Shown here in pieces: positions 33,069 to 52,606 of a DNA stretch of 64,000 nt. The stretch covers positions 4,588,001 through 4,652,000 of the forward strand of contig NZ_JADWYI010000001.1 in NCBI RefSeq assembly GCF_016904885.1, in the 5' to 3' direction. Numbering within the stretch: position 1 is the stretch's first letter; every line of letters begins with the position of its first letter. The position numbers and the translations under genes are program-made. The stretch is from Archangium primigenium. Its GTDB lineage: Bacteria > Myxococcota > Myxococcia > Myxococcales > Myxococcaceae. The notes under the pieces are model-generated. The model was not told the DNA's origin. It saw nothing but the letters and a program-made list of their open reading frames with translations, and made no database searches.

Positions 33069-34340
33069 TCAGTCGCCCCGCAGCCGCGCCCGCGTCTCCT
33101 CGAGGCGCTCGCGGCCCGCGTCCGACAGGCCCTCGAAGTGGGGAAGGGACGCCACGCGCTCGAGCCGTGCCGCCCGCTCGGGATCGCTCAGGCCTGGAAG
33201 GCTGCGGCGCACCACGTCCAGGTAGCGCGCCAGGGGCACGAGCGTCGCGTACCAGCTCGCCTGGCGTCCCAGCCCCGCGAGGCGCTGCTGTTCGCGGCTG
33301 ACCCCGGGCAGCGTGGGTCCCGGGCGGCCTTCCTCGGGCAGGGCCTCGGGGGCCGGGTCCAACCGGGCGCGCAGGTCCTGGGAGAACCGTTGCTCCACGG
33401 CGCCCGTCCGCGCGAGGCGCCGCACCAGGGCGCCGCAGACCTCGCAGGCGCGCTCCAGGGCGCCCGCGGGGAGCGGCACCGCGTGGCCACAGCTGCCACA
33501 GCGGCCGTCGAGCGCGTCCAGTCCGAGCACCTCGGCGGAGAAGGGCCGCTTGAAGGAGCAACCCGGGCAGATGAGCTGGGTCGCGGTCCGCGCCTGGAAG
33601 GACACCAGGGCGCAGTGGGGACACGTCCACTCGAGGTACACGCCCAGGTCATCCGAGGAGACGGCATCGGTCTCCCGGACGTTGTTCACCCCGTGGAGGC
33701 GCCGCAGCACGGCGAGCCGCTGCGCGGGGGCCAGCAGGGGCAGCCACGCGTTGACGGTGAGCGACAGGGTGAGCTGGCAGCGGGAGGCGGGCGGCATGCC
33801 GTCGGGGTCCTCGAAGCCCGGCAGCTCGAAGAGCCGCGCGTAGAGGCGGGTGAGCAGCTCCAGGACGCGCTCCAGCGTGGGCAGGGGATCGCGCAGGTCC
33901 ATGGCGGAGCAGACCGTCATCAGCTCCGCGTTGAGCGCGACGAGGGACGCGTCCGCGAGCCCGTGCAAGCGCACCCAGGCGTCGTAGCGCACGTAGCGCT
34001 CGCGGTAGGCCGCGTCGGTGTGCACCTCGGGGGGGAACTGCTGGGGCGTGGCGTCCATCTGCAGGGACACCGCCTCGCGCAAGAGGGGCAGTGCCTGCTC
34101 GAGGCGGCCCGCGTGCACGTGCGCCGTGGCCGCCGCCACCCGCTCCTGCAGCGCGGTGAACTTGGGCATCAAGGCCGGGTAGTCCCGCAGCCAGGCGGCA
34201 TAGGCCGGCGACTCGAACCACGCCTGCCAGTCGATGCCCACCAGCGACTGGCAGTAGCCACACCGGACCCAGGCGGCGTGGCCCGTGGACTCCACGTGGG
34301 CACCACAGGCATGACAGCGATAGCGAAGGAGCAGGGCCAT
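33069..34340 (-). CDS. Multi-zinc-ribbon protein of unknown function
   Basis: A 423-residue soluble protein with at least three four-Cys sites: CHACG with CGYC at residues 8-33, CPHC with CPGC near 240-265, and CGSCG with CEVCG near 280-310. Between them is a helical domain (YPALMPKFTALQERVAAATAHVH and on). The C-terminus repeats LSDPERAARLERVASLPHFEGLSDAGRERLEE. No catalytic motif is visible; zinc ribbons suggest nucleic-acid or protein contacts. ATG 34340 is just before MALLLRYRCHACG; an upstream in-frame start would add 27 Arg/Pro-rich residues. The gene stands alone on the minus strand. Confidence 0.65.
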   Translation of the reverse strand: MALLLRYRCHACGAHVESTGHAAWVRCGYCQSLVGIDWQAWFESPAYAAWLRDYPALMPKFTALQERVAAATAHVHAGRLEQALPLLREAVSLQMDATPQQFPPEVHTDAAYRERYVRYDAWVRLHGLADASLVALNAELMTVCSAMDLRDPLPTLERVLELLTRLYARLFELPGFEDPDGMPPASRCQLTLSLTVNAWLPLLAPAQRLAVLRRLHGVNNVRETDAVSSDDLGVYLEWTCPHCALVSFQARTATQLICPGCSFKRPFSAEVLGLDALDGRCGSCGHAVPLPAGALERACEVCGALVRRLARTGAVEQRFSQDLRARLDPAPEALPEEGRPGPTLPGVSREQQRLAGLGRQASWYATLVPLARYLDVVRRSLPGLSDPERAARLERVASLPHFEGLSDAGRERLEETRARLRGD

Positions 34341-34390
34341 GAGTCTCGGGAGTCTACCAATCCGCTCGCCGGGTGGAGTCCTCCCACGAA

Positions 34391-37300
34391 TCAAAGAGTT
34401 CGGCCGTGAGACTCCTCGCATTCTTTATACTTCTTTCGCGCGATATCGGGCTCCTCGAGCAAATACTGCTCTCGTTCCAAGGAGGAAAGACACGCGGTGG
34501 TCGCCGTCTGAAAGTACTCGCGCAGGGGTTCGGGCTTCAGGTACCAGACGCGAACCAATCCCTCCCCGCACACCGTGATGACCCTGGAGCCATCGGGAGT
34601 AATCAACGCATGAAGGGCGGTGGTGAATTCTAGCTTTTCCTCGTGCTGAAAGACAAGCGGAAGTGATTGACTCTTCATGGGCCAAAGGCGAGCGGATCCG
34701 TCATCGGAGACGGTCAGGACATGATCGCCATCGGGCGTGAAGGTTGCGGAGGCCACCGCGCTCTTATGCCCCTTGAGATCAAGTGAAGGACCAGTTCCGT
34801 ACATAGGCCTCACGCTGGCGATTCCTTCGGATGCCGCGATGACGACAGAGGTACCCGCTGGACTGAACTCGGCGGAGTTCAGAACGTTCGTGTATCCCGC
34901 GAAGAGACGCGGGGCCCTCTCCGGTTCGGAGGTTCGCCAGAGTTGGGCCACGCCATCGTTGGACGCCACGAGGATGAGAGAGCCATCAGGACTGAAACTG
35001 GCGGATGTCGCCGTTCCCGTGTGTCCTCTGAGTGGACGGGGGGCTTCGTTCTTCTCCAGGTTCCAGAGAAGAACGGTTTCGTCATCGGAGCCGGTCAAGA
35101 GCTTTTTGCCATCGGGACTGAATGTGGCGAGGTTGATTGAATCCTTATGGCCTTTGAGCCTGCGGGGATTCGTGTCTGGACTGTAGGTATGCCAGAGACG
35201 TGCATTCTTGTCTTCCAGCGTGAGAACGAGAGCACCGTCGGGACTGAAGAGCGCGGAGGTCATCTCGTTGTTGGTTTGAAGGACACGCGGAGGGTGCTTC
35301 GTGTCCCCTACCTGCCACAGGCGCGCGGTACCATCGTCCGAGGCGGAGAGCGCAAGTGAACCATCGCGATTGAAGGTGGCCGAGTTCACTGTCCACCCAA
35401 GGTGCCCGGAGAAGGATTCCAACCGCTGACCCGAGCCATCCAAACTGAAGAGATGGAGGGTGCCATCCGAAGCGGCGGTGAGGATTTCCGAGCCGTTGGG
35501 GCTGAGGGCGGGGGGCATGTTCGAGTCCGCGGGGGTCGAGAAGAACGGTGTGCCCGCGCCTCGAAGACGCCAGAGGCGTGCGGTTCTATCCTCGGAAGCC
35601 GTGAGGATGCTGGATCCATCGGGACTGAAACGGGCGGTGCTCACCCAATCCGTATGGCCGTGGAGGATGAGGGGCTGCTCCATGCCATCCGTGCGCCAGA
35701 GCCGGGCCGTTCCATCGGCGGAGGACGTGAGGATGAAGGAGCCATCGGGACTGAACGTGGCGGAGGTCACCCAATTGGAATGTCCCGAGAGTACGCGCGG
35801 CGGATCCTGACCCTCGGAGTTCCAGAGGCGAGCGGTGTTGTCACTCGACGCGGTGAGGAAGGAATGACCGTCTTGACTGAAAGCGACCGAGTTCACATCG
35901 GCCGAATGGCCTTTGAAGACACGTGGCTCCGCAACACCAAGAGTCCAAAGGCGAACGGAGTGCGTGGTGGGGTAACTTAAACTGGAGGAGCCCGTGAGGA
36001 CGGATTTCCCATCGGGACTGAACGTGGCACAGTTCACCGCTTCATCACTGTTGAACTCGTCCTTGTGGTCGAGCCTGTCAAGAATATCTCCATTCAGGTT
36101 CCAGACCCGCGCGGTACCGTCGTTGGACGCGGTGAGGATTCGTAGTCCATCCGTGCTGAAGAGGGCGACGTTCACCTGATCTTCATGACCCCCGAGGCGG
36201 AGCGGCGGTTGATCGGGAGCGCTTGTTCTCCAGAGATAGACTGACCCATAAGCATTCGCGATGAGAATGAGGGCGCTATCTGGACTGAACGTAGCGGCCG
36301 TCAAGGGAACGGGATCATTTTTGTTGAAATCCGGCCCCTTGAGGACAATAGCAGGTACGTGCTCTTTCTGCGCATCCCAGAGTCGCGCCGTTCCATCGTA
36401 CGACGCGGTGAGGATGCGGGAGCCGTTGGGACTGAAGGTGGCGAAAGACACGGCATCTTCATGACCCGTGAGGATGCGGGGTTCTCCCTCTCCATCCGCC
36501 CTCCAGAGTCGCGCGGTTCCATCAGCCGAGCTTGTGAGGATATGTGAGCCATCGGGGCTGTAGCTGATTCCCTCGACGCTCGAGGTGTGGCCACTGAAGA
36601 TGGCATTGCTGATGAGCCGTTGACTGATCTGCGACGCGCTCTGCAACCACTCTTTGTCCGACGCACCGTCTACCGTCTTGATCTCGCGCAGGACCAGCAT
36701 GGCCTGGGTGGGACTCTTGTCAAGGAGCACCTTCGCATTGGACAATTGGAGATTGATCCCGACCAGCCTTGCTTGCCTGCGTGCCTCCTCGGCGTTCGTC
36801 GTGGCGAGATCCTGCTGTTCGAGCGCCCGTCGTGCATTGGCCTCGGCGGCCTCCCGCAGCCGCTGCGCCTCTTGGGCATTGGTCATGGCGAGCCATTGTT
36901 GTGCCTGGGCTTCCTGGAAATTCAGCTCGGCGGCCTCCTGCTGCTGCCGCGCCTCCTTGGCATTGGCCGTGGCGGCCTCCTGTTGCCGCTGCGCCTCCTT
37001 GGCATTGACCTCCGCCATTTCTTGCTGCCTGCCTGCTTCCTGGGCATAGGCCTCGGACGCGGACTTCTGGGCAAGCGCCTCCTGGGCATTGGCCTCGGCG
37101 ATCCGTTGCTGCGCGGCGGCCTCCTGGGCGTTGTGCTCGGCGGCCTCCCGCTGGCGCCGGGCCTCCCGGGCATTCTCCTCTGCACGCTGCTTCTGGAGCC
37201 GGGACTCTTGGGCATTGGCCTCCGCGAGCCGCTGCTTCTCGAGCGCTTCGCGGGCGTTGTGCTCGGCGGACCGCCGCTGCCGCTGGGCCTCCTCGTAATT

Positions 37301-39886
37301 GCTGACGGCGTTCTTCTTCTGCGCCTTGGCGTCCTGCGCGTTTTCCTGGGCGACGGCCTGCTGCAGATGGGACTCCCATGCGTGCTGTACGGCCTTCTCC
37401 CGCTGCTGGCTGGCCTCCTGGGCGTTGGTCTCGGCGAGCTGTTGCTGTTCGAGCGCCTTGTGGGCATTGGCGCTGGCCGCCCGGGCCTGTAGCAGCGCCA
37501 GCACCGTGAGGAGCACGAGGGCGATGACCACCGTACACGCCATCGAGGAGCGCCGGGTGCGGAGCACACGCCGTCGCCGCGCACTGGCCCGGAGGAAGCC
37601 GCTCTCCACGGCGTTGAAGCCCAGGGCGGCATCGGGCCGGTCCTCGGGCGACACCGTGGACAGGGCCAGGGGTTCATCGGTGCGGCGCAGGGCGGCGGGC
37701 GCGAGGCCCAGTTGCGCCATGCGTCCATCCGCCCACAGGAAGTCATGACTCTGGCGATGGCGCTGCCACTCGGCCGCGGCATGGGACACACGCCGCAGCA
37801 ACAGCAACTCACGGCTCGAGTGGCGGGCCCAATCGTGGAGCCGTGGCCAGGCGGACAGGAGGGCGTCGTGGGCGGGCTCGACGCACGGGCCGCCATCGTC
37901 GCTGGCCACGATCAGGCGGCAGCCTTCCAGCGTGCTCAGGACCCGACGGACGCGCTCATTCTCCTCGGCATGGCCGTAATCCAGCTCGGCGCGCGGGACC
38001 CGGCGGCGCGCCAGCTCTCCTCCCTCCAGGGACACCATGCGCAGCAGCACGTTGCGCAGGGTGTGTTGGAAGGCGGGGAGCTCTCCCGGGCGGAGCGCCG
38101 GCAGGGGGGCTTGTTCGGCGGATGCGAGCGGGGGCGTCCCGGAGAAGATGAGCTCCGCCCGGCGCTGGAGCGCGCCCGCGATGCCGCCCCCAATCCGGCG
38201 GTAGTCCTCGAAGGTCAGGGTGCGATCACTCCGGCCGCTCGCGAGGTAGCCATCGAACAGCTCGCTGAGCGCCACGGAGAGCAAGGGCAGCGCTCCGGGC
38301 ATCTGCTCGACGTCATCCAGCAGGTGCTCGACGAGCCCGGGCTCGAAGAAGAGGACACAGGCCTCCGCGGGCTTCTCGATACAGAGGCGCAGCTCGTCCC
38401 GGTTCATGGGAGGCAGGGGGCGCCGGTTCGCGTGCCATTGCTCGGAGGACAGGCCCGAGGGTCGCATCAGGGAGAGGAAATGGGGCTCGAAGTCCGAGCG
38501 GAGCAGCCACAGCAGGCGCAGCCGGGGATGGGCGAGCTGGAGCAGGCCACTCAGGGCCCGGAGGAAGGCCTGACGCTGGGCGTCGTCGGGGCAGGTGGTG
38601 ACGAGCTCCTCGAGGGGATCGACGACGAGAAGAAGCGAGAGGTCGCCGTGGTGGATGAGGAAGGCGCGGACGCACTCGGCGGCGGCGTGGGGCTGGGTGA
38701 GGAGGTTCGCGGCCGAGGGGGAAGGCTGCCCGGGCCGCAGCGAGGCGAGCCAGGCGGCCAGCGCGGCGAGGGGCTGGGTGCTCGGTCGCAGGGAGGGGGG
38801 AACCCTCCACGCCGGGTCGTCGCTCAATCGGGGCAGCAGCGCCGCGTGGACCGTGCTGGACTTGCCGATGCCGGAAGGGCCGCACAGCACCAGGAGGGGA
38901 CGGGCGCGCAGGTGCTCCATCAGCGCATCGACGAAGCGCTCGCGGCCGAAGAAGAGGTGGCGGTGGGCCGAGGAGAAGGGACGCAGGCCCAGGTAGGGGT
39001 TGGAGCGTCGGGAGAGAGGCGCCGCCAGGGGCAGGGCGGGGAAGGCCTCCGCGAGGAGGAAGAGGAACTCGCCACTGTCGTGCCAGTCCAGGGGCCAGAG
39101 CGCGGGGGTCTGCTGTCCATACGCGGGCAGCAGCTCGACCAGCCTGTCGCGCAGGAAGGTCGAGAGCTCGGAGGCGGTTAGCAGGCCGTCCTGATTGGTG
39201 TCCGCGGGGGAGGGGAATTGGAGGGCTTGAAGCAACGCCAGCGCGAAGGGTGAGTGGCGCCCGTCCCCGAGCGACTCCTGGGAGGGTTTGGACAGGAGTC
39301 TGTCGGAGGCCAGCTCATCGTGCGCGGTGGAGAGCAGGAGCTGAAAGGAGCGGCGGGAGGAGAAGTGCCGGAAGCGCTCGAGGAAGAGGGGCGCGGGAGC
39401 GTCGGGGGCGCGCAGATCGCGTGACGTGGAGTGGGGGAAGGCACCCGCGAAACAGCAGTCCAGGATGAGCAGCAGATGGCGGCAGGGCAGCTCGCGCAGC
39501 GCCTGGCGGAGCGACGCCATGGGCCAGTAGGAGGAGGGGTCCTCGCGGCGGGCGTCGGCGGGCAGCAGGAAGCCGGCGATGCGGTGCTCGTCATCGGTGT
39601 GCGCCAGCCCGTGCCCCGCGAAGTAGATGAGCAGCCTATCTGGAGGCGGCTGAAGCGAGGGAAGGTCCCGGGTCAGAAGCTCGGTGAGGGCGGCGAGGGA
39701 GGCGGCCTCATCGAGCAGGCGCATCACCTCGAATCCTTGGCCCTCCAACGTCGCCGCGACGGCCTCGGCATCCCGGACGGCATTGAAGAGTGGAGGAATG
39801 CCGTGGGTGTAGGTGTTGACACCAATGACAATGGCCAGACCCCGCTCGAAGTCCGGCGGGACGCTGCTGAAATCGGAGCATCGCAT
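34391..39886 (-). CDS. Caspase/STAND-NTPase/coiled-coil/WD40 giant protein
   Basis: About 1831 residues. A caspase-like peptidase (C14) is N-terminal, with GLAIVIGVNTYTHG, catalytic His92 in YFAGHG and Cys144/145 in ILDCCFAGAF. An EF-hand-like loop, DTNQDGLLTASE, spans 229-240. A STAND NTPase follows, with P-loop GPSGIGKSS at 336-344 and Walker B LLLVVDPLEEL. A membrane segment (CTVVIALVLLTVLALL) leads to a long coiled coil of AxxNAxEA heptads. The C-terminal 700 residues are about 14 WD40 repeats of the FSPDGSxILTASxDGTARLW type. It would sense something with the propeller and activate a protease at the membrane. ATG 39886 is preferred; ATGs at 39955 and 39964 are also in frame. Confidence 0.88.
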   Translation of the reverse strand: MRCSDFSSVPPDFERGLAIVIGVNTYTHGIPPLFNAVRDAEAVAATLEGQGFEVMRLLDEAASLAALTELLTRDLPSLQPPPDRLLIYFAGHGLAHTDDEHRIAGFLLPADARREDPSSYWPMASLRQALRELPCRHLLLILDCCFAGAFPHSTSRDLRAPDAPAPLFLERFRHFSSRRSFQLLLSTAHDELASDRLLSKPSQESLGDGRHSPFALALLQALQFPSPADTNQDGLLTASELSTFLRDRLVELLPAYGQQTPALWPLDWHDSGEFLFLLAEAFPALPLAAPLSRRSNPYLGLRPFSSAHRHLFFGRERFVDALMEHLRARPLLVLCGPSGIGKSSTVHAALLPRLSDDPAWRVPPSLRPSTQPLAALAAWLASLRPGQPSPSAANLLTQPHAAAECVRAFLIHHGDLSLLLVVDPLEELVTTCPDDAQRQAFLRALSGLLQLAHPRLRLLWLLRSDFEPHFLSLMRPSGLSSEQWHANRRPLPPMNRDELRLCIEKPAEACVLFFEPGLVEHLLDDVEQMPGALPLLSVALSELFDGYLASGRSDRTLTFEDYRRIGGGIAGALQRRAELIFSGTPPLASAEQAPLPALRPGELPAFQHTLRNVLLRMVSLEGGELARRRVPRAELDYGHAEENERVRRVLSTLEGCRLIVASDDGGPCVEPAHDALLSAWPRLHDWARHSSRELLLLRRVSHAAAEWQRHRQSHDFLWADGRMAQLGLAPAALRRTDEPLALSTVSPEDRPDAALGFNAVESGFLRASARRRRVLRTRRSSMACTVVIALVLLTVLALLQARAASANAHKALEQQQLAETNAQEASQQREKAVQHAWESHLQQAVAQENAQDAKAQKKNAVSNYEEAQRQRRSAEHNAREALEKQRLAEANAQESRLQKQRAEENAREARRQREAAEHNAQEAAAQQRIAEANAQEALAQKSASEAYAQEAGRQQEMAEVNAKEAQRQQEAATANAKEARQQQEAAELNFQEAQAQQWLAMTNAQEAQRLREAAEANARRALEQQDLATTNAEEARRQARLVGINLQLSNAKVLLDKSPTQAMLVLREIKTVDGASDKEWLQSASQISQRLISNAIFSGHTSSVEGISYSPDGSHILTSSADGTARLWRADGEGEPRILTGHEDAVSFATFSPNGSRILTASYDGTARLWDAQKEHVPAIVLKGPDFNKNDPVPLTAATFSPDSALILIANAYGSVYLWRTSAPDQPPLRLGGHEDQVNVALFSTDGLRILTASNDGTARVWNLNGDILDRLDHKDEFNSDEAVNCATFSPDGKSVLTGSSSLSYPTTHSVRLWTLGVAEPRVFKGHSADVNSVAFSQDGHSFLTASSDNTARLWNSEGQDPPRVLSGHSNWVTSATFSPDGSFILTSSADGTARLWRTDGMEQPLILHGHTDWVSTARFSPDGSSILTASEDRTARLWRLRGAGTPFFSTPADSNMPPALSPNGSEILTAASDGTLHLFSLDGSGQRLESFSGHLGWTVNSATFNRDGSLALSASDDGTARLWQVGDTKHPPRVLQTNNEMTSALFSPDGALVLTLEDKNARLWHTYSPDTNPRRLKGHKDSINLATFSPDGKKLLTGSDDETVLLWNLEKNEAPRPLRGHTGTATSASFSPDGSLILVASNDGVAQLWRTSEPERAPRLFAGYTNVLNSAEFSPAGTSVVIAASEGIASVRPMYGTGPSLDLKGHKSAVASATFTPDGDHVLTVSDDGSARLWPMKSQSLPLVFQHEEKLEFTTALHALITPDGSRVITVCGEGLVRVWYLKPEPLREYFQTATTACLSSLEREQYLLEEPDIARKKYKECEESHGRTL

Positions 39887-39974
39887 CGGCGGACACAACA
39901 GGGCGGATTCCACCGAGAATCCACGTTTGATAGGCGCCTGCGTTCTCGCTCGCATGGAAAGCAACCCGCCAGGA

Positions 39975-40022
39975 AGGGTCCCTACCGGAGCTGGCTCGTG
40001 GGCCCGTTCCGGTAGGGACCCT
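39975..40022. terminator. Perfect 15-bp-arm stem-loop
   Basis: AGGGTCCCTACCGGA at 39975-39989 pairs perfectly with 40008-40022 around an 18-nt loop. It lies just after the stop of the leftward repeat-lipoprotein gene (40028) and before the caspase-STAND gene. It is likely a terminator or transcript-end structure; no T-tract follows on the minus strand. Confidence 0.6.
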
Positions 40023-40027
40023 CAATC

Positions 40028-43000
40028 CTACGGCGCCAGAACTTCAGCGGCCTCGACCAGGCGCGCCATCACACGTTCGCTGTTGGTACTCGGGGAGGGA
40101 TTGGAGCGGCGGTAGACGACGAGCGAGGTTTCTCCCCCCATGGAGGTCACCACGGGCTCTCGTTCATTCTCCGGCGCGGTGGCGATGGGGAAGCCGTTGG
40201 TATCGACCACCTTGCCCAGCTCGTTGACCCGCGCGCCATAGATGTCGGAGAACCCGGTACCCCCGCGGTAGTCCTGCCATACCACCAGGAAGTTCGCACC
40301 ATCATAAGCGACGACGGGAGCGCTCTGTGTGCTGATGGCAGCGGAGATGGAGATGCCACTGGCGTCGAGCACCGTGCCGCCGCTGCTCACCCGCGCACCG
40401 TAGATGTCGGAACCCGTGCTGCTACGAGCTTCCTCCCAGGCTACCAGGAAATACAAGCCGTTGTGCGTGATTGAGGGATAGCCCTTGCCACTGGTGGTCG
40501 TGGCAATGGGAATGCCGTTGGCATCGAGCACCGTGCCGCTACTGCTCACCCGCGCACCGTAGATGGCGCCGCTGCCAATGCGGTAGTCAAGCCATGCAAC
40601 CAGGAAGTTCGTCCCGTTGAAGGCCACCACGGGATTGTGCTGATCATTGGAGGCGGTGGAAATGGAGATGCTGTTGGTGTCGAGTACGGCGCCGTTACTG
40701 CTCACCCGCGCACCGCGGATGTCATTATTCGTGTTGCTGTTATACTCCCTCCACACAACCAGGAAGTTCGCCCCATCGTATGCGACGGTGGGATCGTATT
40801 GCGAGGTCGCATCAGAGGAGATGGGAATACCCGTGGTGTCGAGCACCATGCCGTCGCTGCTCACCCGTGCGCCGTAGATGTCGTAACTCGTGTTGCTGCG
40901 GTACTCGCACCACACGATCAGATAGCTTGTCCCGCCATAAGCAACCTTGGGATTGAACCTGGAGTAACCGCTGGTTGCCAGGGGGATGCCGCTGGTGTCG
41001 AGCACCGTACCCATTTCGTTGACCCGTGCGCCATAAAGCGCGGAATTGCCGTGGCGTGTGTCGTGCCAGACGACCAGATAGTTCGTTCCATCGCTGGCGA
41101 CGGTCGGGGTATATTGGCCGTTCCCGGATTTCGAAATGGAAATATCACTGGTGTCGAGCACCGTGCCAGCGCTGCTCACTCGCGCCCCATAGATGTTTGG
41201 ACCGTTGATATAGCTATAATCATGCCAGACAACCAGAGAACTCGTCCCGTCGCTGGCAAGGGCAGGTTCGTGCGCACTGCTTGAAGCCGTGGAGACGAGG
41301 ATGCCATTGGTGTCAAGCACTGCCCCGACACTATTCACGCGAGCGCCGTAGATGTCGTAGCTGCGGGTGTCTTGCCAGACCACCAGGAAGTTTGTCCCCT
41401 CCTTCGCCAGTGCGGGAGCCATCTGGTGATTGGTTGCAGTGGAAATAGGAATTCCGCTGGGGTTGCGCACCACTCCCGTACTGCTCACCCGAGCGCCGTA
41501 GATGTCGTAGTTCGTACCGCTGCGATAGTCCTGCCACACCACAAGGAATTCCGTCCCACTGTAGGCCACCGCAGGGGACTCCTGACGGTTGACGGCAGTG
41601 GAGATCAGGATGCCGTTAGGATTCAGCACGGAGCCGGTGTTGCTGACGCGAGCCCCATAGATGTCCTCGGTTCCACCGCTGCGAGTGTCTTGCCAGACCA
41701 CCAAGGAGTTTGTCCCATTGCTGGCCACAGCGGGTTTCGTCTGGTGATTGACGTAGGTGGAAATGGGAATTCCACTGGAGTCGAGCACGATGCCCGCGTT
41801 ACTCACCCGGGCTGCGTAGATGTCGTGGCCGCCGTTGCGATAGTCCTGCCAGACGACCAGGAAGTTCGTTCCATCGTGGGTTACGGCGGGTTCCGTCTGG
41901 CTATTGGTGGCGCTGGAGATGGGGATTCCGTTGGTATCGAGTACGATACCCGCGTTACTCACCCGGGCTCCGTAGATGTCATAGCCGCCGTTGCGGTAGT
42001 CCTGCCAGACGACCAGGAAGTTCGTTCCATCGTGGGTCACGACGGGAAAGGACTGCTCATTGAGGGCGTTGGAGACGCGAATGCCTGTGGCATCGAGCAC
42101 GACTCCGCTATTGCTCACCCGAGCGCCATAGATGTCATAGTTGTTGCTGCGGTAGTCGTGCCAGACAACCAGGAAATTTTTCCCATTGTGGGCAATCGCA
42201 GGCGAACTCTGGCTATTGTCCGCGGGACCATACACCGGGTCGTCCATGCCAATCTCGGGTGAGACGATGGGATCAAGCACGGCGGGGTAGCTTGACCCCT
42301 CCACCACGCTCGCCGACACGCTCAACACGATGCGGTCGACCTCGAAACGGGCGGGCACGGCGGTACGTTGTCCCGCGGCGTCCACCCAGGTGCCATGGCC
42401 GTAGCGCACGCCCAGGCCGGTACTCCCACTGGCGAAGTGCAACCCCTGGGCTGTCTCTCCGAGGAAACGCCCGTGCTTCACTGGCACCTGAACCTCGAGG
42501 TCCCCTGCTCCCAGGGGCTTCTGCTCGAAGCTCCAGCTCTGCTCCACTCCGTCCTTGCCGTTGCGGAAGTGTTCCGCCACCGCGCTCCGGGCGAGGAGCA
42601 AGCTCCCAAGCTCCTGCACCTGACCCGTCGCTTCGTGGCTCGACAGCGGCGTGCCTCCCCGGTTCACCTGGGCGGTACCGAAGCGGACGGGCTCTCCCTC
42701 CAGATGCGCCTCATGGAGGGGGGCTTCCGGCTCCCGAGCCCGCGATTCGTCCCGAGCAAGCCGTGTAGCCTCGGACCGCTCGGACGTGCTCCGTGGGTAG
42801 TGGTAGGGGGTGACGCTGAAGCCGTTGGCCTCCACTCGCACGGCATAGGTGCTGTGCCCGCCCTCCCAGGCCGAGCCTTCTGGCCGGAAGGCGAAGTGCA
42901 CTTGATCCATGACCTTCTGTACGTCGAAAGGGGCCTTCTGCTGCCCGGAGTCCGCGGGGGCTTCGTTGGGCGAGGAAGGTGCGCGCTCTTCCTGGGCACA

Positions 43001-43063
43001 GCCAGAAAGCAGCCAGACCGCGAGAACGCCCGCGGCCCATCGGATGCGTGAATAGGCAATCAT
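40028..43063 (-). CDS. Large repeat-containing surface lipoprotein
   Basis: About 1011 residues, with lipoprotein signal WAAGVLAVWLLSGC (Cys about 22), a Pro/Ser linker and a 230-residue N-terminal region. About 14 tandem units of roughly 50 residues follow, each of the form PAVAxDGTNFLVVWQDYR-xxYDIYGARVSxxGxVLD and xxGIPISTA. The WxD and YGAR positions are the most constant. The units look like beta-propeller or beta-solenoid blades. It is probably exposed on the outer membrane and may bind surfaces or polysaccharides; the function is not known. ATG 43063 is used; an in-frame ATG at 43102 precedes it. DNA-level repeats here may recombine. Confidence 0.75.
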   Translation of the reverse strand: MIAYSRIRWAAGVLAVWLLSGCAQEERAPSSPNEAPADSGQQKAPFDVQKVMDQVHFAFRPEGSAWEGGHSTYAVRVEANGFSVTPYHYPRSTSERSEATRLARDESRAREPEAPLHEAHLEGEPVRFGTAQVNRGGTPLSSHEATGQVQELGSLLLARSAVAEHFRNGKDGVEQSWSFEQKPLGAGDLEVQVPVKHGRFLGETAQGLHFASGSTGLGVRYGHGTWVDAAGQRTAVPARFEVDRIVLSVSASVVEGSSYPAVLDPIVSPEIGMDDPVYGPADNSQSSPAIAHNGKNFLVVWHDYRSNNYDIYGARVSNSGVVLDATGIRVSNALNEQSFPVVTHDGTNFLVVWQDYRNGGYDIYGARVSNAGIVLDTNGIPISSATNSQTEPAVTHDGTNFLVVWQDYRNGGHDIYAARVSNAGIVLDSSGIPISTYVNHQTKPAVASNGTNSLVVWQDTRSGGTEDIYGARVSNTGSVLNPNGILISTAVNRQESPAVAYSGTEFLVVWQDYRSGTNYDIYGARVSSTGVVRNPSGIPISTATNHQMAPALAKEGTNFLVVWQDTRSYDIYGARVNSVGAVLDTNGILVSTASSSAHEPALASDGTSSLVVWHDYSYINGPNIYGARVSSAGTVLDTSDISISKSGNGQYTPTVASDGTNYLVVWHDTRHGNSALYGARVNEMGTVLDTSGIPLATSGYSRFNPKVAYGGTSYLIVWCEYRSNTSYDIYGARVSSDGMVLDTTGIPISSDATSQYDPTVAYDGANFLVVWREYNSNTNNDIRGARVSSNGAVLDTNSISISTASNDQHNPVVAFNGTNFLVAWLDYRIGSGAIYGARVSSSGTVLDANGIPIATTTSGKGYPSITHNGLYFLVAWEEARSSTGSDIYGARVSSGGTVLDASGISISAAISTQSAPVVAYDGANFLVVWQDYRGGTGFSDIYGARVNELGKVVDTNGFPIATAPENEREPVVTSMGGETSLVVYRRSNPSPSTNSERVMARLVEAAEVLAP

Positions 43064-43243
43064 TGTCGTTGAAAACTCCGTACCAGGATGTCTGTTCACC
43101 ACGACAAGAGGGGAGTTGCCCCCCCGCTCCCCCCCCTGTCGCAGGGCTGGGTGAACTCAGCCACGGTGATGACCAGCAAACATCGAGCCAGCGCCTTGGA
43201 CGGGTTTCTCTAGAGGGAAGAATGCCCTGCTGCCTCCTGTGGC

Positions 43244-43303: not shown

Positions 43304-44767
43304 TCAGGCCTCCGCCGGGCCCCCGTCCTCGTCTTCCTCCACGTCGGCATTGACGCGATTCTTCAGGAAGCGCTCGACGGCCTTGCGGCTCCATCCCAGT
43401 TTCTTGCCGGCCTCCGTCTTGTTGCCCCGCGCCTGCTTCATGGCCTCCAGCACGAGGGCCCTGGTGAGGACATGGCTTCGGTCCTGGTCGGGCAGGGGAA
43501 GGGCGAGGAGTTGCCGGGCCATCTGGCCCAGCACGTCCTCCAACGCATCCCCCCGGGTCTCGGAGGGAACACAACGCGCCAGCGTCTCGGCGTCGATGCG
43601 CTCGGAGTCGGCGAGGATGGCCAGCCGGTAGATGGCATTGCGCAGCTCGCGGATATTGCCTGGCCAGGGACGCTGACAGAGTTGCTCGATGGCCTGCTGC
43701 GTGAAATGCAGTGGCTTGCGGTGACTGGCGGCGAAATGTTGGACGAGCGCCGGGATGTCCTCCCGGTGCTCCGAGAGGGACGGAACGCGGACGATCAGCA
43801 CGTTGAGCCGGTGGAAGAGATCCTCGCGGAACAACCCCTGCCGGACGCGCTCCTGGAGGTCCACGTGGGTGGCGGCGACGATGCGGCCTCGGAAGACCTG
43901 CTCGCGGGCGGTGGGCCCGACGGGCCTGAAGCGCCGGGTCTCCAACACGCGCAGCAGCTTGGTCTGGAGGATGGGGGTGAGCTCGGCGACCTCATCCAGG
44001 AAGAGGGTGCCGCGCCGGACCAATGAGAAGTACCCATCCTGGTCCCGCGTCGCGTCGGTGAAAGCACCCCGGACGTGACCGAAGAGCTGATCCTCGACCA
44101 GGGTCTCGGCGAGTGCGCCGCAGTTGATGTCGAAGAGGGGCTCGGAGGGGTGGGGACCGAGTTTGTGGAGGCCCTGGGCCACCAGCTCCTTGCCGGAGCC
44201 TGTCGGCCCCAGTATGAGGACGGGCACGGGCTCCTGGATGTCGGCCGTGGCGATCCGCTGCAGCAGGGCGCGCAGGTTCTGCATGGCCACCGAGGTGCCA
44301 ATGAGTCCCAGGTTCGAGTCGGGGGCGCCTCGGGCCCGCAGGTCCAGCAGCTCCTGATTCAGCTCGAGCTTGTGGCGCAGCTCCTTGAGGATGAGGGGGA
44401 CCCGCTGCTCGAGCTCCGTCTTGAGTACGTAGTCCTCGGCCCCCAGCTTCATGGCCTCGCGGATCTCGCTGGGCTGGCTGTGGCTGCTCACCACGATGGG
44501 CACGGTCTGGTAGCGGCCGCGGATCTCCTGGATGAGCGTGAAGCCCTCCCGGTTGCGCATGTCCGCGGAGAGCTGGAGGTCGATGAAGGCGACGTCGAGC
44601 ACGGCCTCCTGGAGGATCTGCCGGGCCTCGGCCAGACTGCTGGCGCGGTAGAGCTCGATGTGCCCGAGGGGTTGCAGGACGCTGGACAGACTCCTCAGCG
44701 CCATCCTTTCGTCATCGACCAGGAGGACCTTGAGAAGCCGTTGTTCGTTCGCATCGTCTGGGATCAT
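43304..44767 (-). CDS. NtrC-type response regulator with altered GAFTGA loop
   Basis: A 487-residue regulator. The receiver domain has VLLVDDE and phospho-acceptor Asp63 (AFIDLQ), with Lys in DYVLKTE. The AAA+ domain has Walker A GPTGSGKE near 190 and Walker B GTLFLDEVAEL. The C-terminal Fis-type HTH is KTEAGKKLGWSRKAVERFLKN. The sigma54-contact loop at 234-239 reads GAFTDA instead of GAFTGA, which in studied family members impairs sigma54 activation. It may work with another polymerase form or differently. It overlaps the histidine kinase stop by ATGA, so the pair is one two-component system. It is last in a leftward operon with the protease-fold genes. Confidence 0.92.
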   Translation of the reverse strand: MIPDDANEQRLLKVLLVDDERMALRSLSSVLQPLGHIELYRASSLAEARQILQEAVLDVAFIDLQLSADMRNREGFTLIQEIRGRYQTVPIVVSSHSQPSEIREAMKLGAEDYVLKTELEQRVPLILKELRHKLELNQELLDLRARGAPDSNLGLIGTSVAMQNLRALLQRIATADIQEPVPVLILGPTGSGKELVAQGLHKLGPHPSEPLFDINCGALAETLVEDQLFGHVRGAFTDATRDQDGYFSLVRRGTLFLDEVAELTPILQTKLLRVLETRRFRPVGPTAREQVFRGRIVAATHVDLQERVRQGLFREDLFHRLNVLIVRVPSLSEHREDIPALVQHFAASHRKPLHFTQQAIEQLCQRPWPGNIRELRNAIYRLAILADSERIDAETLARCVPSETRGDALEDVLGQMARQLLALPLPDQDRSHVLTRALVLEAMKQARGNKTEAGKKLGWSRKAVERFLKNRVNADVEEDEDGGPAEA

Positions 44768-47097
44768 GGCGGGGGGGGAAGGGTGAGGCGGAACGCGGTG
44801 CGCTCCGCTTCACGCAGAAAGGAGATGTCCCATCGGAAGGTGTACGCGATGCGCTGGACCACGGTCAGTCCAATGCCATACCCCTCGGGTTTCGTGCTGA
44901 TGCGGCGGCTGGTGAAGAGGACGCTCGCCACCTGCGCCGAGACGCCTGGGCCCGTGTCCCAGACGTCGAGGAGCAGCTGGCCCGCGGCGCTCGTGTGGAG
45001 GCGGATGCCCATGGCGCCCGTGTCGGGGGATGCCTGGGCCGCGTTGCGCAGGAGGTTGCTGAGCAGTTGGACCAGGGATCCTCCCTCGGCGGTCACGGTC
45101 AGCTCCGGGGGAACGTCGATCGTGACGGACAGCTTCTTCTCGTGAATGGGCTCGCGAACGAGCAGGAGCGCGCGCTGGATGTGCCCGAGCAGGGGCAGGG
45201 GCGCGAGCCGTGGGGTCGGAAGCTGGAGCCGACGCAAGGAGTCGAGCATCCGTTTCATGCGGTCGACCTCCTCGCGCGCGAAGGAGAGGTCCTCCTCGTC
45301 GAGCGCCTGGCCGCTGGCGCTTCTTCGGAGCAGGTCCTCGAGGAAGTTCAGGGGATAGACCATCTCGTGGCACAGCTCCTCGCTCAGCGCGCTGAGCGTC
45401 AGCTGCTTCTCCCGATGCGCCGCGCCCACCTCCAGGCGTCTGATGGACTCGAGTTCCTGAACGACCTCGGCGTTGTGAAGGGCCAGGGCGCCCAGGGTGG
45501 CGAGTGTCTCCAGCAGGTGGATGTCCTCCTGGGTGTAGAGGGCGGCCCCGCGCTTGGGCGCGACGAGCAGCACGGCTCGAAGTTCGCCCAGCGAGCGCAT
45601 GGGCAGCAGGAGGTGCTGCTCGCGGGGATTCTGGGCCGTCCAGAGGCTCTCCCCCTGCGTCAGCCGAGCCTGGGCGTCACTCGGGAGATGGGAGAGTCCG
45701 GCGAGGGCGCCGGGCTCGACCACCCGGGCCTGGAGTGTTGGGAGGGCCTTGACCGCGACGTCCTCCACGGCGCTCCGGATGGAGGGAAGGTCACGCAGGG
45801 CCGCCAGCCTGTCACGGAGGTCCTCGATGGTGCCGCGGAAGGTCCGGCTGGTGGGGAAGAACCACCGCGCCTGGAGGTGCCGGGCAAGTCCCAGGAAGAG
45901 GAGGAAGAGCGCCAGGCCCAGCAGGGCGAGCAGCGTGGGCACGGTGTGGACGTTCCGGGTTGCAAGATAGGCGAGGGCGGTCCCCAGGACCGACAGCAGA
46001 AGCGCGCCCAGGGTGAAAGGCACCCACGACATCCTGGGCGCGAGCACCGCCTGGGATTCCAGGATGTTGTTGCGAACCATGGCGTAGCCGATGGACAGCG
46101 GAAAAAGCAGGACCGCCAGGGGCAGCACCAGGTGTCTCACGTCCCGGCCAATGGCGAGGGAAAGCACGTGCACGAGCCCGATCAGCAGGGGCGTGGTGAG
46201 CAGGCCCCAGGACGCGGCGGTCAGCTCGGTGCGGGCCGGTCCCGTGCTGCGCCGCATGCGCAAGAGGATGGCTCCCGCGAGGATCACGAAGCTGGGGGCC
46301 ATCGACTGATCGATGGCGGAGCGGATGGGCTGGATGTTCCATCCGGTGAAGCGGGCCACGATGAGGCCGAGGGCCGTCGCGGCCCCCAGTCCCGTCAGGG
46401 CGAGCAGCCCACGACGAAGGGCCACCGTCTTCCAGGCGAGGGGTCTGGGAAAGGCATAAGCCAACCAGAGGGCTGAGATGGGAATGCCCACGGCCGCGAG
46501 CGAGAAGAATGGCGCGAGCCACGCGTTCGTATGATAGTCATAGAAGGAGAGCAGGAGGAGAAAGGTCATCACCGACCAGAAGGCGTAGGCCCGCCGCGCG
46601 GCGGGGAGGCCTCCCAGGGTGAAGACCATGCCTCCAAACCAGAGCACCAGCCAGGCCGCCAGCGCATAGGTGACGAAGAAGAACAAGAACTCCTTGGCAC
46701 CGAGGCGGCTGACGCGTGCGAGGACGGGGGGCGAGGTCTGTCCTCGTGGATCCACGAACTCGAGCCGGGCCACCGAATCGCTGGCGGTGTCCGCCGTGAG
46801 CGCATAAAGAGCCAGCGGCGAGGAAAGCGGAGCGCGCCCTGACAGGGCTTGGCCATTCACGGCCACGAGACGGTGGCTGACGTGGGGGAGGGGCTGGGGG
46901 CCCTCCCACGACGGCAACTCGACGAGCGAGTAGAAGTGATAGGCATCCAGCAGGAGTGATGGGAATGGCTTGCCCAGGGTGGAGGACGCGCTGACCGTGG
47001 CCAGACCCGTGAGCACGAGGGCCAGGAGGACGGGGAGGAACAGGCGATGTCCCCACGGGGGGCGGACTCGCGAACTCGCTGCGGGGACCATGGTCAT
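44764..47097 (-). CDS. Membrane sensor histidine kinase
   Basis: A 777-residue kinase. An N-terminal membrane segment is followed by an extracytoplasmic stretch containing HRLVAVNGQALSG (PDZ-like). Six or more hydrophobic helices lie between about residues 150 and 420, then a GAF-like domain (about 440-545). The phospho-acceptor helix is SEELCHEMVYPLNFLEDLL (His near 575). The ATPase has N-box LLSNLLRNAAQASP, DTGPGVS and GYGIGLTVV. It should phosphorylate the regulator encoded immediately after it. The gene starts 33 bp after the subtilisin-like gene stop, so the sensor is co-transcribed with the protease-type operon and may control or be controlled by it. Confidence 0.92.
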   Translation of the reverse strand: MTMVPAASSRVRPPWGHRLFLPVLLALVLTGLATVSASSTLGKPFPSLLLDAYHFYSLVELPSWEGPQPLPHVSHRLVAVNGQALSGRAPLSSPLALYALTADTASDSVARLEFVDPRGQTSPPVLARVSRLGAKEFLFFFVTYALAAWLVLWFGGMVFTLGGLPAARRAYAFWSVMTFLLLLSFYDYHTNAWLAPFFSLAAVGIPISALWLAYAFPRPLAWKTVALRRGLLALTGLGAATALGLIVARFTGWNIQPIRSAIDQSMAPSFVILAGAILLRMRRSTGPARTELTAASWGLLTTPLLIGLVHVLSLAIGRDVRHLVLPLAVLLFPLSIGYAMVRNNILESQAVLAPRMSWVPFTLGALLLSVLGTALAYLATRNVHTVPTLLALLGLALFLLFLGLARHLQARWFFPTSRTFRGTIEDLRDRLAALRDLPSIRSAVEDVAVKALPTLQARVVEPGALAGLSHLPSDAQARLTQGESLWTAQNPREQHLLLPMRSLGELRAVLLVAPKRGAALYTQEDIHLLETLATLGALALHNAEVVQELESIRRLEVGAAHREKQLTLSALSEELCHEMVYPLNFLEDLLRRSASGQALDEEDLSFAREEVDRMKRMLDSLRRLQLPTPRLAPLPLLGHIQRALLLVREPIHEKKLSVTIDVPPELTVTAEGGSLVQLLSNLLRNAAQASPDTGAMGIRLHTSAAGQLLLDVWDTGPGVSAQVASVLFTSRRISTKPEGYGIGLTVVQRIAYTFRWDISFLREAERTAFRLTLPPPP

Positions 47098-49871: not shown

Positions 49872-50474
49872 TCACCAGCTCGCGGTGAGGTCTTCCCAAG
49901 GCGCGATGTGGGCGAAGGCCGGCTCGTCGACGAGCAGTTCCTTGAGGCAGCGCAACTGCGGCTCACTCAGCCGCACCGATCGGCCAGCGAGCCGGGAGAT
50001 CTCCTGGTCCAGGGCCTCCCGGCTGCCAGGCGTTCCGGGCTCGTACAGGGCGGTGGCGGCCTGGAGCGCCTTGAATCGCCGGGTGAGGCCACCATCGGGC
50101 TTGAGGAGCGCCAGGTAGAGCGTGTGAAGGTCCGAGGCCGAGACCATCTCCTCGACCTCCTCGTACCGAGGCCCGCCGCTCCAAGGAGAGAGCGTGGCGA
50201 GGGTGGACGACTCGGCCAGACACTCGAAGGCGTGGCGCTGGGCGTCGCTCAGCCGCACCGGTCGCGCGAGAAGGGTGGTGAGGAACCGCTCCAGCGCGCT
50301 GGTTCCGCCAGGGACATACGGGGCGCGGATGGCGTCTCGCAGCGTGTGCAAGCGCTCCAGTCCATTGCAGTCCGGGCGCAGGAGCTGGAGGTAGACATCC
50401 CTGAACATCGCGTTGGACGGCGTGACGGCGTCCGCGTGGCGGTGCGCGTGGGCAGCGGATGGATGGGGGTTCAT
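49872..50474 (-). CDS. Tandem-repeat domain protein, possible effector-associated adaptor
   Basis: A 200-residue protein made of two copies of the same domain of about 75 residues. One runs from FRDVYLQLLRPDCNGLERLHTL to STLATLSPW. The other runs from LHTLYLALLKPDGGLTRRFKAL to AFAHIAPW. Shared landmarks are the LL-PD start, RxVRLSxxQ near the middle and the L-PW end. The units are helical and hydrophilic, like effector-associated domains that link sensors and proteases by homotypic contacts. That role is inference. ATG 50474 is chosen. It is the first gene of the leftward operon, 260 bp from the divergent caspase gene. Confidence 0.55.
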   Translation of the reverse strand: MNPHPSAAHAHRHADAVTPSNAMFRDVYLQLLRPDCNGLERLHTLRDAIRAPYVPGGTSALERFLTTLLARPVRLSDAQRHAFECLAESSTLATLSPWSGGPRYEEVEEMVSASDLHTLYLALLKPDGGLTRRFKALQAATALYEPGTPGSREALDQEISRLAGRSVRLSEPQLRCLKELLVDEPAFAHIAPWEDLTASW

Positions 50475-50734
50475 CGGTGGCGTCCTCGAAGCGAGTGGGG
50501 GACCGGCACGATGCTCCAGGCATCGTGCCGAGGTGTCTGAGCAACTGCCGTGCCGTCTCCTGCGGATGGGCGGAGGCCCTGGGCGCGGGGGACCGCGGAC
50601 GCATGTGTCCACCCAGTGGACGAAAGCGACCACCGGGCGCGCGCCGATGCGTGTGCCCGATCCATCCTCTGGCCGGAGACGTCCGTGGAGGTCCGATGGG
50701 CCTTGGGCATGGCCCTTGCTCGGGTTGGAGGACA

Positions 50735-52606
50735 ATGCGCGGACATGCACTCATTCTTGGAAGCCAGACGTACGGGCTGATGGGCGTGCTGGGAGATGCG
50801 GCGCGGATGGCGGATGCACTGAGGGGGCTCGGCTTCAACGTGAGCGTGTGCGCGGGTGGGGAGGCGACACGCGAGAGCCTGCTCCAGGGTTACCGCCGAC
50901 TCATCGAGGCCTGTGCGCCAGACGAGGCGGCCTTCATCTATTACGCGGGCCACGGCGCGAGCGCGTTGGACTCGCAGGGAGGGGTCCAGTTCATCGTGCC
51001 AGTGGACTTCGCGCATTCCACGGAAGAGGACTTCCGTGGCATCACCTCCCTGGAGCTGTCGGGGCTGCTGGCGGAGCTCACAGCGAAGACGCGGAACGTG
51101 ACGGTCGTGCTCGACTGCTGTTTCGCCGCGCGCATGTTTCGCGGACTGGAGCTGGTGCCGAGGTCTCTTCCGGAAGTGTCGCCGTCAATCGTGCGCGCGC
51201 ACCTGCTGCGGCTCCAGACCCAGGGTCTCGTCCCCCGAGGGCTACACGTCGAGGGCAACCCGGATGCGATCCGACTGGTCGCCTCGGCGCTCGATGGAGC
51301 GGCCTACGAGTACACCAATGCGCGAGGTGTGAGGACGGGGCTGCTCACCGATACACTGCTCGAGGTGCTCGAGGAGGCACGCGGACTGCGTGTCACCTGG
51401 GGTCAGCTTGGACGGCGTATCCGTGAACGGGTGTTGGCGCGGTGTCCCGTGCAGCGGCCCGAGCTCGAGGGCCCCGGGAGGCGGCTGTTGTTCCAACTCG
51501 ATGAACTCGAGTGGGACTTCTCCCTGCCGTATTACCCGGAGCACAATCGTCACTGGCTGCGCGGAGGCCGCCTCCATGGCGTTCACCTGGGGGATGAGTA
51601 CGCGATCATGCCCTTGGGCGCGGAGGGTCCGGATCGGGAGCGGGCGCTCGCGCTGGCTCGGGTTGTCGATGTCCTGGGTGGCTCCAGTCAGGTGGAGTTG
51701 GGCATGAGTGTCCGCTCCGTCATTCCAACAGGGGTCCCCTCCTATCTGCTTCGGTCCGGCCAACCCCGGCGCGCCGTGCTGCTGGAGGGGCGCTGGGAGG
51801 AGACCCCCTTCCACATGCAGCTGCGCGAAGGGCTGGAGTCCTCGCCCTTCCTACGACAGTCCCCCGGCGATGAGCACGAGCCCGTGCTCGCCCGCCTCAA
51901 GCCCACAGGACACACGATCGAAGTGATCGATGAGAACGGGGAGGACAACCTCGTTCACCCCCTGCCACTCACGCCCTCCAGCGTCTCGGAGGTGATACGT
52001 GCCCTGGAAGTCCTGGCGCGAGCGCAGGCGCTGCGTGAGCTCGAGAGTGCCGCGGATTCGGACTGGCTCGCGGCGTGTCTCCATATCGAGTGGGGGCGGG
52101 TGGTCGCCGGACATGCGAGCCGGCTTCCAACGGTCGGGGCGGGTCTCCACGCGGGAGAACGTCTCTACGTCCGCTTTCGGAACACGGGCCGCTCCCGCAT
52201 CTATGTCTCGATCTTCGACGTTGGAGTTGGCGGCTCCATTACCTTGTTGAACACCTCGCAACCCTCGGGTCTGTCCATCGGGCCCGAGTGTGTGGAGGCC
52301 CTGGGAGTCCGCGCGGACGGCGCGTTCGTGGGGCTCGAGCTGGAGTGGCCCGTCGAGGTGCCGTCTTCTGGCGCGCGACCCGAGACCCTGGTGGTCATCG
52401 TGTCGGACGCCCCCGTGGATTTGCGGCTGCTCGAGACGTCTGGCTCCCGACGGGGGCGGGCCACGGCGTCGTCCTTGGAACGGCTGGTTCGCGCGCTCCA
52501 GGTTGGGAAGACCCGATCCGTATCTATACCTGGGAGCGGTTCCCACTTGGTGAACCATGCCGTGAAACACATCCGCTTCTGGTTGGACCCACAGCGTCGC
52601 CGGTAG
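50735..52606 (+). CDS. Caspase-like protease (C14) with C-terminal sensor-type domain
   Basis: A 623-residue soluble protein. Residues 1-230 form a caspase fold: ALILGSQTYG, catalytic His73 in YYAGHGAS and Cys128/129 in VVLDCCFAAR. The middle region (to about 480) is unassigned. The C-terminal part, LHAGERLYVRFRNTGRSRIYVSIFDVGVGGSITLLN, resembles DUF4384-type beta domains often attached to caspases or kinases in multicellular bacteria. ATG 50735 follows TTGGAG, and the product has no signal peptide. It is followed after 9 bp by a trypsin-like gene, forming an operon divergent from the subtilisin-HK-RR operon. Probable role: regulated proteolysis or cell death (inference). Confidence 0.85.
   Translation: MRGHALILGSQTYGLMGVLGDAARMADALRGLGFNVSVCAGGEATRESLLQGYRRLIEACAPDEAAFIYYAGHGASALDSQGGVQFIVPVDFAHSTEEDFRGITSLELSGLLAELTAKTRNVTVVLDCCFAARMFRGLELVPRSLPEVSPSIVRAHLLRLQTQGLVPRGLHVEGNPDAIRLVASALDGAAYEYTNARGVRTGLLTDTLLEVLEEARGLRVTWGQLGRRIRERVLARCPVQRPELEGPGRRLLFQLDELEWDFSLPYYPEHNRHWLRGGRLHGVHLGDEYAIMPLGAEGPDRERALALARVVDVLGGSSQVELGMSVRSVIPTGVPSYLLRSGQPRRAVLLEGRWEETPFHMQLREGLESSPFLRQSPGDEHEPVLARLKPTGHTIEVIDENGEDNLVHPLPLTPSSVSEVIRALEVLARAQALRELESAADSDWLAACLHIEWGRVVAGHASRLPTVGAGLHAGERLYVRFRNTGRSRIYVSIFDVGVGGSITLLNTSQPSGLSIGPECVEALGVRADGAFVGLELEWPVEVPSSGARPETLVVIVSDAPVDLRLLETSGSRRGRATASSLERLVRALQVGKTRSVSIPGSGSHLVNHAVKHIRFWLDPQRRR

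What the first reader, a model, noticed from the sequence alone, without database searches (positions are those of the whole stretch)
34391..39886. Caspase with an EF-hand-like loop joined to STAND, coiled coil and WD40
Seen: DTNQDGLLTASE (39167-39202) fits the calcium-loop pattern DxNxDGxLxxxE between the protease and the P-loop domain; the coiled coil is built of near-identical AxxNAxEA heptads. Inference: calcium may gate the protease, adding an input to a death or immunity receptor anchored in the membrane.
Basis: partly seen in the sequence, partly recalled or inferred. Interest (0 to 1): 0.6.

Follow-up and report, generated by a model that had tools for sequence, protein, structure and literature searches.

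The report
Caspase receptor with EF-hand-like loop
A membrane-anchored bacterial receptor carries a caspase protease with a probable metal-binding (calcium-type) loop built into its own fold; the same loop recurs in many other bacterial caspases, so a calcium input to these proteases is worth testing, although calcium control itself is not shown.

Summary
Window 34391-39886 (-) encodes 1,831 aa: caspase, nSTAND1, one membrane helix, repeat linker, WD40. DTNQDGLLTASE is residues 229-240. Three corrections: the loop lies inside the caspase, joining two helices of its p10-like half; the linker is about 17 units of 14 residues; the caspase-STAND-WD40 layout is known. The loop is not chance: among 123 caspases framed blind to ligands, 62 carry all four ligand classes against 26 expected by column shuffling, though a phylogeny-controlled test lacked power. 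An AlphaFold model (pLDDT 87) puts a strand at loop positions 7-9 and a helix from position 10, as in EF-hands, but the entering helix ends six residues early and no second EF-hand exists. Metacaspase calcium ligands are absent. Most likely it is a built-in metal site. Metal binding is probable, calcium gating unproven. In passing: a loop-free caspase homologous to another in this window lies just upstream of 21 of 43 relatives.

The parts
34391..39886 (-). Gene: caspase / nSTAND1 / TM / 14-residue repeats / WD40 protein, 1,831 aa. ATG at 39886 is preferred: relatives L035-L037 have Met at the same aligned place. In-frame TTG 39964 is also open.
39047..39844 (-). Caspase domain, residues about 15-280, p20-like plus p10-like halves
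   Evidence: PF00656; AlphaFold model; aligned over model 11-283 with caspase-3 (5iab_A, Z 20.3) and 15-282 with metacaspase-4 (6w8r_B, Z 21.5)
39611..39613 (-). Catalytic His92 (FAGHG)
39452..39454 (-). Catalytic Cys145 (LDCCFAG)
39167..39202 (-). EF-hand-like loop DTNQDGLLTASE, residues 229-240, between helices 213-222 and 238-252 of the caspase
37745..38998 (-). nSTAND1 NTPase, residues 297-714, P-loop GPSGIGKS
   Evidence: PF20703 E 2.9e-90; sequence
37490..37546 (-). Transmembrane helix, residues 781-799; Arg-rich N-terminal side (RRRRVLRTRR) suggests caspase and STAND inside, WD40 outside
   Evidence: hydropathy; topology inferred from the positive-inside rule (recalled)
36770..37483 (-). 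About 17 tandem 14-residue units (consensus xxAExNAQEAxxQx), residues 802-1039
34532..36604 (-). WD40 repeats, residues about 1095-1785
   Evidence: PF00400 E 1e-108, 11 stretches; C-terminal edge judged by eye
50459..52606 (+). P0002: second caspase without the loop; homologue of the tandem partner found beside relatives elsewhere

Best explanation
This is a STAND-type receptor. WD40 propellers, probably outside the inner membrane, sense something; the nSTAND1 NTPase oligomerises and brings the cytosolic N-terminal caspases together to activate them. The caspase carries its own EF-hand-like metal site in the connection between the last two helices of its p10-like half. Bound Ca2+ most likely holds that helix pair, and so the p10-like half, in a folded and competent state; it is an assembly or stability requirement and at most a coincidence input, not the main trigger. 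Shown: domains, intact dyad, loop position, conservation of the ligand pattern, predicted geometry. Inferred: topology, oligomerisation, Ca2+ as the metal, any effect on activity.
For: The loop sits at one aligned place, after HSxFxxxLLxxL, in caspases of different architecture: N-terminal with nSTAND1/WD40, C-terminal with polysaccharide deacetylase and TPR, beside CsgG or PDZ domains. Frames chosen blind to ligands: 62 of 123 have D1, [DNS]3, [DNS]5 and [ED]12, expected 25.7, highest of 2,000 column shuffles 38; 12 have none of the four, expected 1.2. Within 74 rows with at least three ligands, entropy is 0.31, 0.46 and 0.18 bits at positions 1, 5, 12 against 2.9-3.35 at 2, 4, 7, 11 (partly circular, since rows were picked by ligands). 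D229, D233, G234, T237, E240 are at least 90% conserved in 38 hand-picked rows. The model has helix 213-222, strand 235-237 (loop positions 7-9) and helix 238-252 from position 10, block pLDDT about 92-93. Loop-free P0002 is modelled with a 6-residue turn there instead of 15. The profile's loop stretch weakly matches true EF-hand proteins 1jfj (E 0.024) and 3akb (E 0.027), the only names besides caspase relatives and other calcium-binding proteins among 25 hits. Metacaspase p20 calcium ligands align to non-acidic residues.
Against: No binding or activity data. The EF match is single and unpaired, and the entering helix ends six residues before position 1. In the phylogeny-controlled pair test only 4 pairs lie on well-supported branches, no result is significant, and some control positions go the same way about as often (position 7: 2.0 same against 0.5 opposite). 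In the caspase-nSTAND1 clade only 12 of 62 keep the canonical loop and 6 keep neither form. The only orthocaspase characterised biochemically, as of the 2017 review, is reported active without calcium (PMC5756287 passages); whether it has the loop was not checked. 5 of the 216 rows lack an aligned H-C dyad and all 62 four-ligand rows have it, but so do nearly all others, so there is no association.
Confidence: 0.5

Rival explanations
1. One reading: Ca2+ is a true switch that gates the protease, so cytosolic Ca2+ rise (for example after envelope damage) turns the receptor on.
For: Ligand pattern and EF-like geometry; caspase predicted on the cytosolic side of a membrane helix, where Ca2+ is normally low (recalled); type I metacaspases are calcium-activated (PMC9622860 passages).
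Against: By known caspase topology (recalled) the connection between these two p10 helices lies away from the catalytic loops, unlike the metacaspase site near the active site. The canonical loop is altered in 50 of 62 caspase-nSTAND1 relatives. No functional data.
Confidence: 0.25
2. The loop is only a structural helix cap (Asx-turn plus E12) with no bound metal; conservation reflects folding.
For: Single loop, early-ending entering helix; 29 of 62 relatives tolerate an insertion between ligands 1 and 5, and 15 replace ligand 3 while keeping D-G...E-L.
Against: A cap needs few side chains, yet positions 1, 3, 5, 12 are kept together and G6 is free to change (DTSLDKLVTLQE, DANADEIVTLEE) in one family.
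Confidence: 0.2
3. Chance match to the EF pattern in one protein.
For: The pattern is short; 87 of 20,000 shuffles of this protein contain it.
Against: Present in all six close copies and in 62 of 216 non-redundant caspases at one aligned place.
Confidence: 0.03

Closest known systems
Metacaspase(orthocaspase)-NACHT-WD40 proteins (PMC3501461; passages seen)
   Same: Same order: caspase, STAND-class NTPase, WD40. The paper calls the layout widely distributed; cyanobacterial orthocaspases often carry WD40 and AAA_16 (PMC8283722 passages).
   Different: Neither set of passages mentions a calcium loop ('EF-hand' and 'calcium' do not occur in either text). Pfam calls this NTPase nSTAND1.
nSTAND1 conflict systems and EACC1-caspase pairs (PMC8195603, PMC7159879; passages seen)
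   Same: nSTAND1 clade; caspases with membrane helices and variable C-terminal modules in multicellular bacteria.
   Different: The EACC1-type caspase model scores 78.4 bits against a cut-off of 140; no calcium loop in the passages seen.
Apaf-1 apoptosome
   Same: STAND NTPase plus WD40 sensor that activates caspase by assembly; Apaf-1 WD40 is among the PDB sequence hits.
   Different: Apaf-1 recruits a separate caspase through CARD; here the caspase is fused, the protein has a membrane helix, and the caspase has the loop.
Type I metacaspase calcium site (CgMCA-I, 7qp1; PMC9622860 passages)
   Same: Caspase fold with a divalent-metal input.
   Different: That site uses G196, D198, D214, T242, D245 in p20. 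Here D198 and D214 align to non-acidic profile positions and D245 falls at His152 by ungapped extension; the candidate site is in the p10-like half.
EF-hand and DxDxDG calcium loops outside EF-hands (dockerin-type; recalled)
   Same: 12-residue ligand order, strand at positions 7-9, exit helix from position 10.
   Different: Unpaired, and set inside a protease; the entering helix does not reach position 1.

Membership tests
Peptidase C14 (caspase) | PF00656 over curated cut-off | tested here: met
   60.1 bits against 21.4
Peptidase C14 (caspase) | His-Cys dyad | tested here: met
   H92 and C145 invariant in A4
Peptidase C14 (caspase) | Caspase fold | tested here: met
   Model pLDDT 87.3; Z 21.5, rmsd 2.9, 221 aligned to metacaspase-4; Z 20.3, rmsd 2.2, 198 aligned to caspase-3
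Orthocaspase defined as p20 without p10 (PMC5756287) | No p10 half | tested here: not met
   The model continues past p20 through strand 180-185, helices 213-222 and 238-252 and strand 262-265 and aligns to caspase-3 to residue 278. This concerns fold, not the p10 sequence model, which was not run.
EF-hand | 12-residue loop with acidic/polar 1, 3, 5, acidic 12, hydrophobic 8 | tested here: met
   DTNQDGLLTASE
EF-hand | Exit helix from position 10 with short strand at 7-9 | tested here: met
   Predicted: strand 235-237, helix 238-252
EF-hand | Entering helix running up to position 1 | tested here: not met
   Helix 213-222 ends six residues before D229 in the model
EF-hand | Paired motifs | tested here: not met
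   One strict pattern match in 1,831 aa
EF-hand | Binds Ca2+ | not testable with these tools
   Needs ITC or terbium assay
Type I metacaspase calcium site | p20 aspartates D198, D214, D245 (CgMCA-I) | tested here: not met
   Profile alignment to 7qp0 puts 'a' and 'l' at D198 and D214; D245 lies just past the aligned stretch, His152 by extension. Alignment confidence there is moderate.
nSTAND1 receptor | PF20703 over cut-off with P-loop | tested here: met
   304.1 bits against 27.1, 297-714; GPSGIGKS
EACC1-associated caspase (NF047832) | Over curated cut-off | tested here: not met
   78.4 bits against 140

The most novel reading that the evidence does not exclude
A large part of bacterial caspases, thought p10-less and calcium-independent, are calcium-loaded enzymes with an EF-hand-like loop built into a p10-like half at a place unlike the metacaspase site; in STAND receptors this loop lets envelope damage (Ca2+ entry) license a caspase, which acts in a two-caspase relay with the tandem loop-free caspase homologous to P0002.
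Probability: 0.15. Interest if true: 0.8.

Novelty: new variant of a known kind. Interest (0 to 1): 0.5.

Why it matters
Published reviews explain calcium-independent orthocaspases by the lack of a p10 domain (PMC5756287, passages). Here the fold model has a p10-like half, and about half of the non-redundant Myxococcota caspases found by a Pfam query (25 of 52) carry a complete EF-hand-like ligand set in it. If metal binding is confirmed, calcium becomes a candidate input for bacterial caspases, testable on a 300-residue fragment, and earlier calcium tests on loop-free enzymes would not settle the question for loop-bearing ones.

Tried and rejected
Loop as a separate linker domain: rejected, it aligns inside the caspase. 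Heptad coiled coil: corrected to 14-residue units. Metacaspase-type calcium site: not found. PADLOC: only a weak caspase model hit for this protein (8.5e-10), no defence system named. Link of loop with intact dyad: none, since nearly all 216 rows have the dyad. Phylogeny-controlled covariation: underpowered, 4 supported pairs; the four-ligand state changes at least 13 times on that p20-only tree. Sequence search of the caspase alone against PDB: nothing useful. Downstream zinc-ribbon gene 33069-34421 as partner: no hit in the fetched loci.

Rows dropped before counts: 293 caspase segments were reduced to 216 by shared 5-mers. 93 of the 216 had no canonical-length frame, among them loop-free partners and proteins with an insertion, and are not in the 123. 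Of the Myxococcota PF00656 matches (a cut list) I fetched 60 stretches by choice, besides the loci the tool returned. The 29 own/order rows came from a query that included the loop and are biased towards it; by source the four-ligand counts are 22 of 29 own/order, 25 of 52 Pfam-found, 15 of 114 genome contigs (p20-only query), 0 of 21 viral. A4 is 38 rows out of 40 picked by hand plus the window, three of the 40 left out. A looser pattern gave 30 insertions and 5 unmatched; (29 and 6) replaces it. One of the 6 (L224) was read from a misplaced start, and two (L212, L220) keep D5 and E12 but differ at position 8. The 43 include near-copies from one contig (L185/L186, L222/L223), and L208 was missed by my overlap limit.

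Full report
The gene. Window 34391-39886 on the minus strand is open for 1,831 codons. Pfam finds nSTAND1 at 297-714 and WD40 repeats; PF00656 caspase is over its cut-off. His92 and Cys145 are in place. One hydrophobic helix, 781-799, is preceded by RRRRVLRTRR, and the linker 802-1039 is about 17 units of 14 residues. By the positive-inside rule (recalled) the caspase and STAND are cytosolic and the WD40 part is outside; this is inferred. The own genome has eight strong nSTAND1 domains, and only the one in this gene coincides with one of its four PF00656 matches.

The loop. DTNQDGLLTASE is residues 229-240. In an alignment of 17 caspases from the same order it falls inside the caspase, after the conserved helix HSxFxxxLLxxL and before the helix that leads to QTP. 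The model (38 rows, mean pLDDT 87.3, pTM 0.88) has helix 213-222, strand 235-237 and helix 238-252. It aligns over residues 11-283 with caspase-3 and 15-282 with metacaspase-4 (Z 20.3 and 21.5), so the domain spans both p20-like and p10-like halves. Strand at loop positions 7-9 and helix from position 10 are EF-hand features; the entering helix ends six residues early and there is no partner EF-hand. In loop-free P0002 the two helices are joined by six residues (model of lower quality, mean pLDDT 72.8).

Is it more than chance? Within the genus all six close copies keep the four ligands (76-83% identity over the query in five of them). For a wider test I gathered caspases with a p20-only query (79 loci), a Pfam query and a viral scan (27 loci). 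From 216 non-redundant domains, 123 gave a canonical-length frame picked only on hydrophobic positions. 62 have all four ligand classes against 25.7 expected from shuffled columns (highest 38 of 2,000), and 12 have none against 1.2. Shuffling ignores relatedness. The tree-based test had four supported pairs and was not significant; D1 and E12 went the same way in 2.5 pairs and opposite in 0.1, but a control position also leaned that way. The four-ligand state changes at least 13 times on the p20 tree. By source it is present in 22 of 29 own/order rows (biased query), 25 of 52 Pfam-found rows, 15 of 114 genome contigs rows and 0 of 21 viral rows. In the own genome, two of four caspases have it: this one and the one at L004.

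Evidence against. In the receptor class itself, 62 unique caspase-nSTAND1 proteins, 12 keep the canonical loop (six from the window's genus), 15 have the 12-residue loop without ligand 3, 29 have an insertion between ligands 1 and 5 (for example ADAFPPATNDKPCGDGVITATEL) and 6 fit none. So 56 of 62 keep an Asp at the start, D/N/S at position 5 and an acid at 12, but the canonical metal geometry is not general there. The profile hits to true EF-hand proteins are weak (E 0.024-0.034).

Other calcium sites. In type I metacaspases calcium is held by G196, D198, D214, T242 and D245 of p20 (Candida glabrata; PMC9622860, passages). The profile alignment to that protein puts non-acidic residues at D198 and D214; D245 lies just beyond the aligned stretch and corresponds to His152 by extension. 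The candidate site here is therefore a different one.

What is known. Passages of PMC3501461 call metacaspase-NACHT-WD40 widely distributed; PMC8283722 counts WD40 in 26% and AAA_16 in 19%. PMC6426788 mentions an EF-hand motif in seven archaeal proteins. PMC5756287 describes orthocaspases as p10-less and links that to calcium-independence. My ten searches of the open library showed no paper describing an EF-hand-like loop as part of the bacterial caspase fold. They see open-licence PMC only, and I read passages of eight papers, no whole text, so absence from print is not established.

Mechanism. Best supported is a STAND receptor whose caspase carries a built-in divalent-metal site that stabilises its p10-like half. 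Oligomerisation-driven activation follows from the STAND and Apaf-1 precedent, not from data here. I put metal binding by this protein at about 0.7 and calcium control of activity at 0.25-0.35.

A second caspase. P0002 (50459-52606, +) is a caspase without the loop, 63-64% identical to a gene lying convergent beside a paralogue in two sister genomes (L038, L039). It is absent, like the receptor, from the fourth genome of the genus. Its best matches outside the genus are caspases directly upstream of caspase-nSTAND1 genes: 21 of 43 such genes with at least 4 kb upstream have one on the same strand within 4 kb, and all 21 match P0002 (E 8e-8 or better). In the control set 6 of 27 other caspases have an upstream caspase, 2 of them matching P0002, one of these (L173) beside a truncated relative of the receptor. 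Two of the partners searched (L171, L208) also carry an alpha/beta-hydrolase-type domain. In the window itself the two genes are about 10.6 kb apart, head to head.

Noticed in passing
50459-52606 (+): P0002, a loop-free caspase of a family that lies just upstream of caspase-nSTAND1 genes in 21 of 43 relatives; a possible two-caspase module.
   Followed up: partly
40028-43102 (-): Probable lipoprotein of 1,024 aa with many repeats of the type GTNFLVVWQDYRxGxxDIYGARVS.
   Followed up: no
39970-40028: Inverted repeat GGTCCCTACCGGA...TCCGGTAGGGACC just after the lipoprotein stop and before the caspase gene, terminator-like but without a clear T run.
   Followed up: no
43304-47097 (-): Sigma-54 response regulator overlapping a histidine kinase, upstream of the lipoprotein gene.
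   Followed up: no
33069-34421 (-): Zinc-ribbon-like protein whose frame overlaps the end of the receptor gene; no hit in fetched relatives.
   Followed up: partly
L171-L190 (for example L177:6986-11593): In cyanobacterial relatives the loop has an insertion rich in Pro, Gly and Lys between ligands 1 and 5 (ADxxPPAxxGKPxGDGVITATEL).
   Followed up: partly
L040-L047: Proteins of about 1,000 aa with the caspase C-terminal to a polysaccharide deacetylase (Pfam run on L040 only) and the loop DLNxDGxVTxSE.
   Followed up: no
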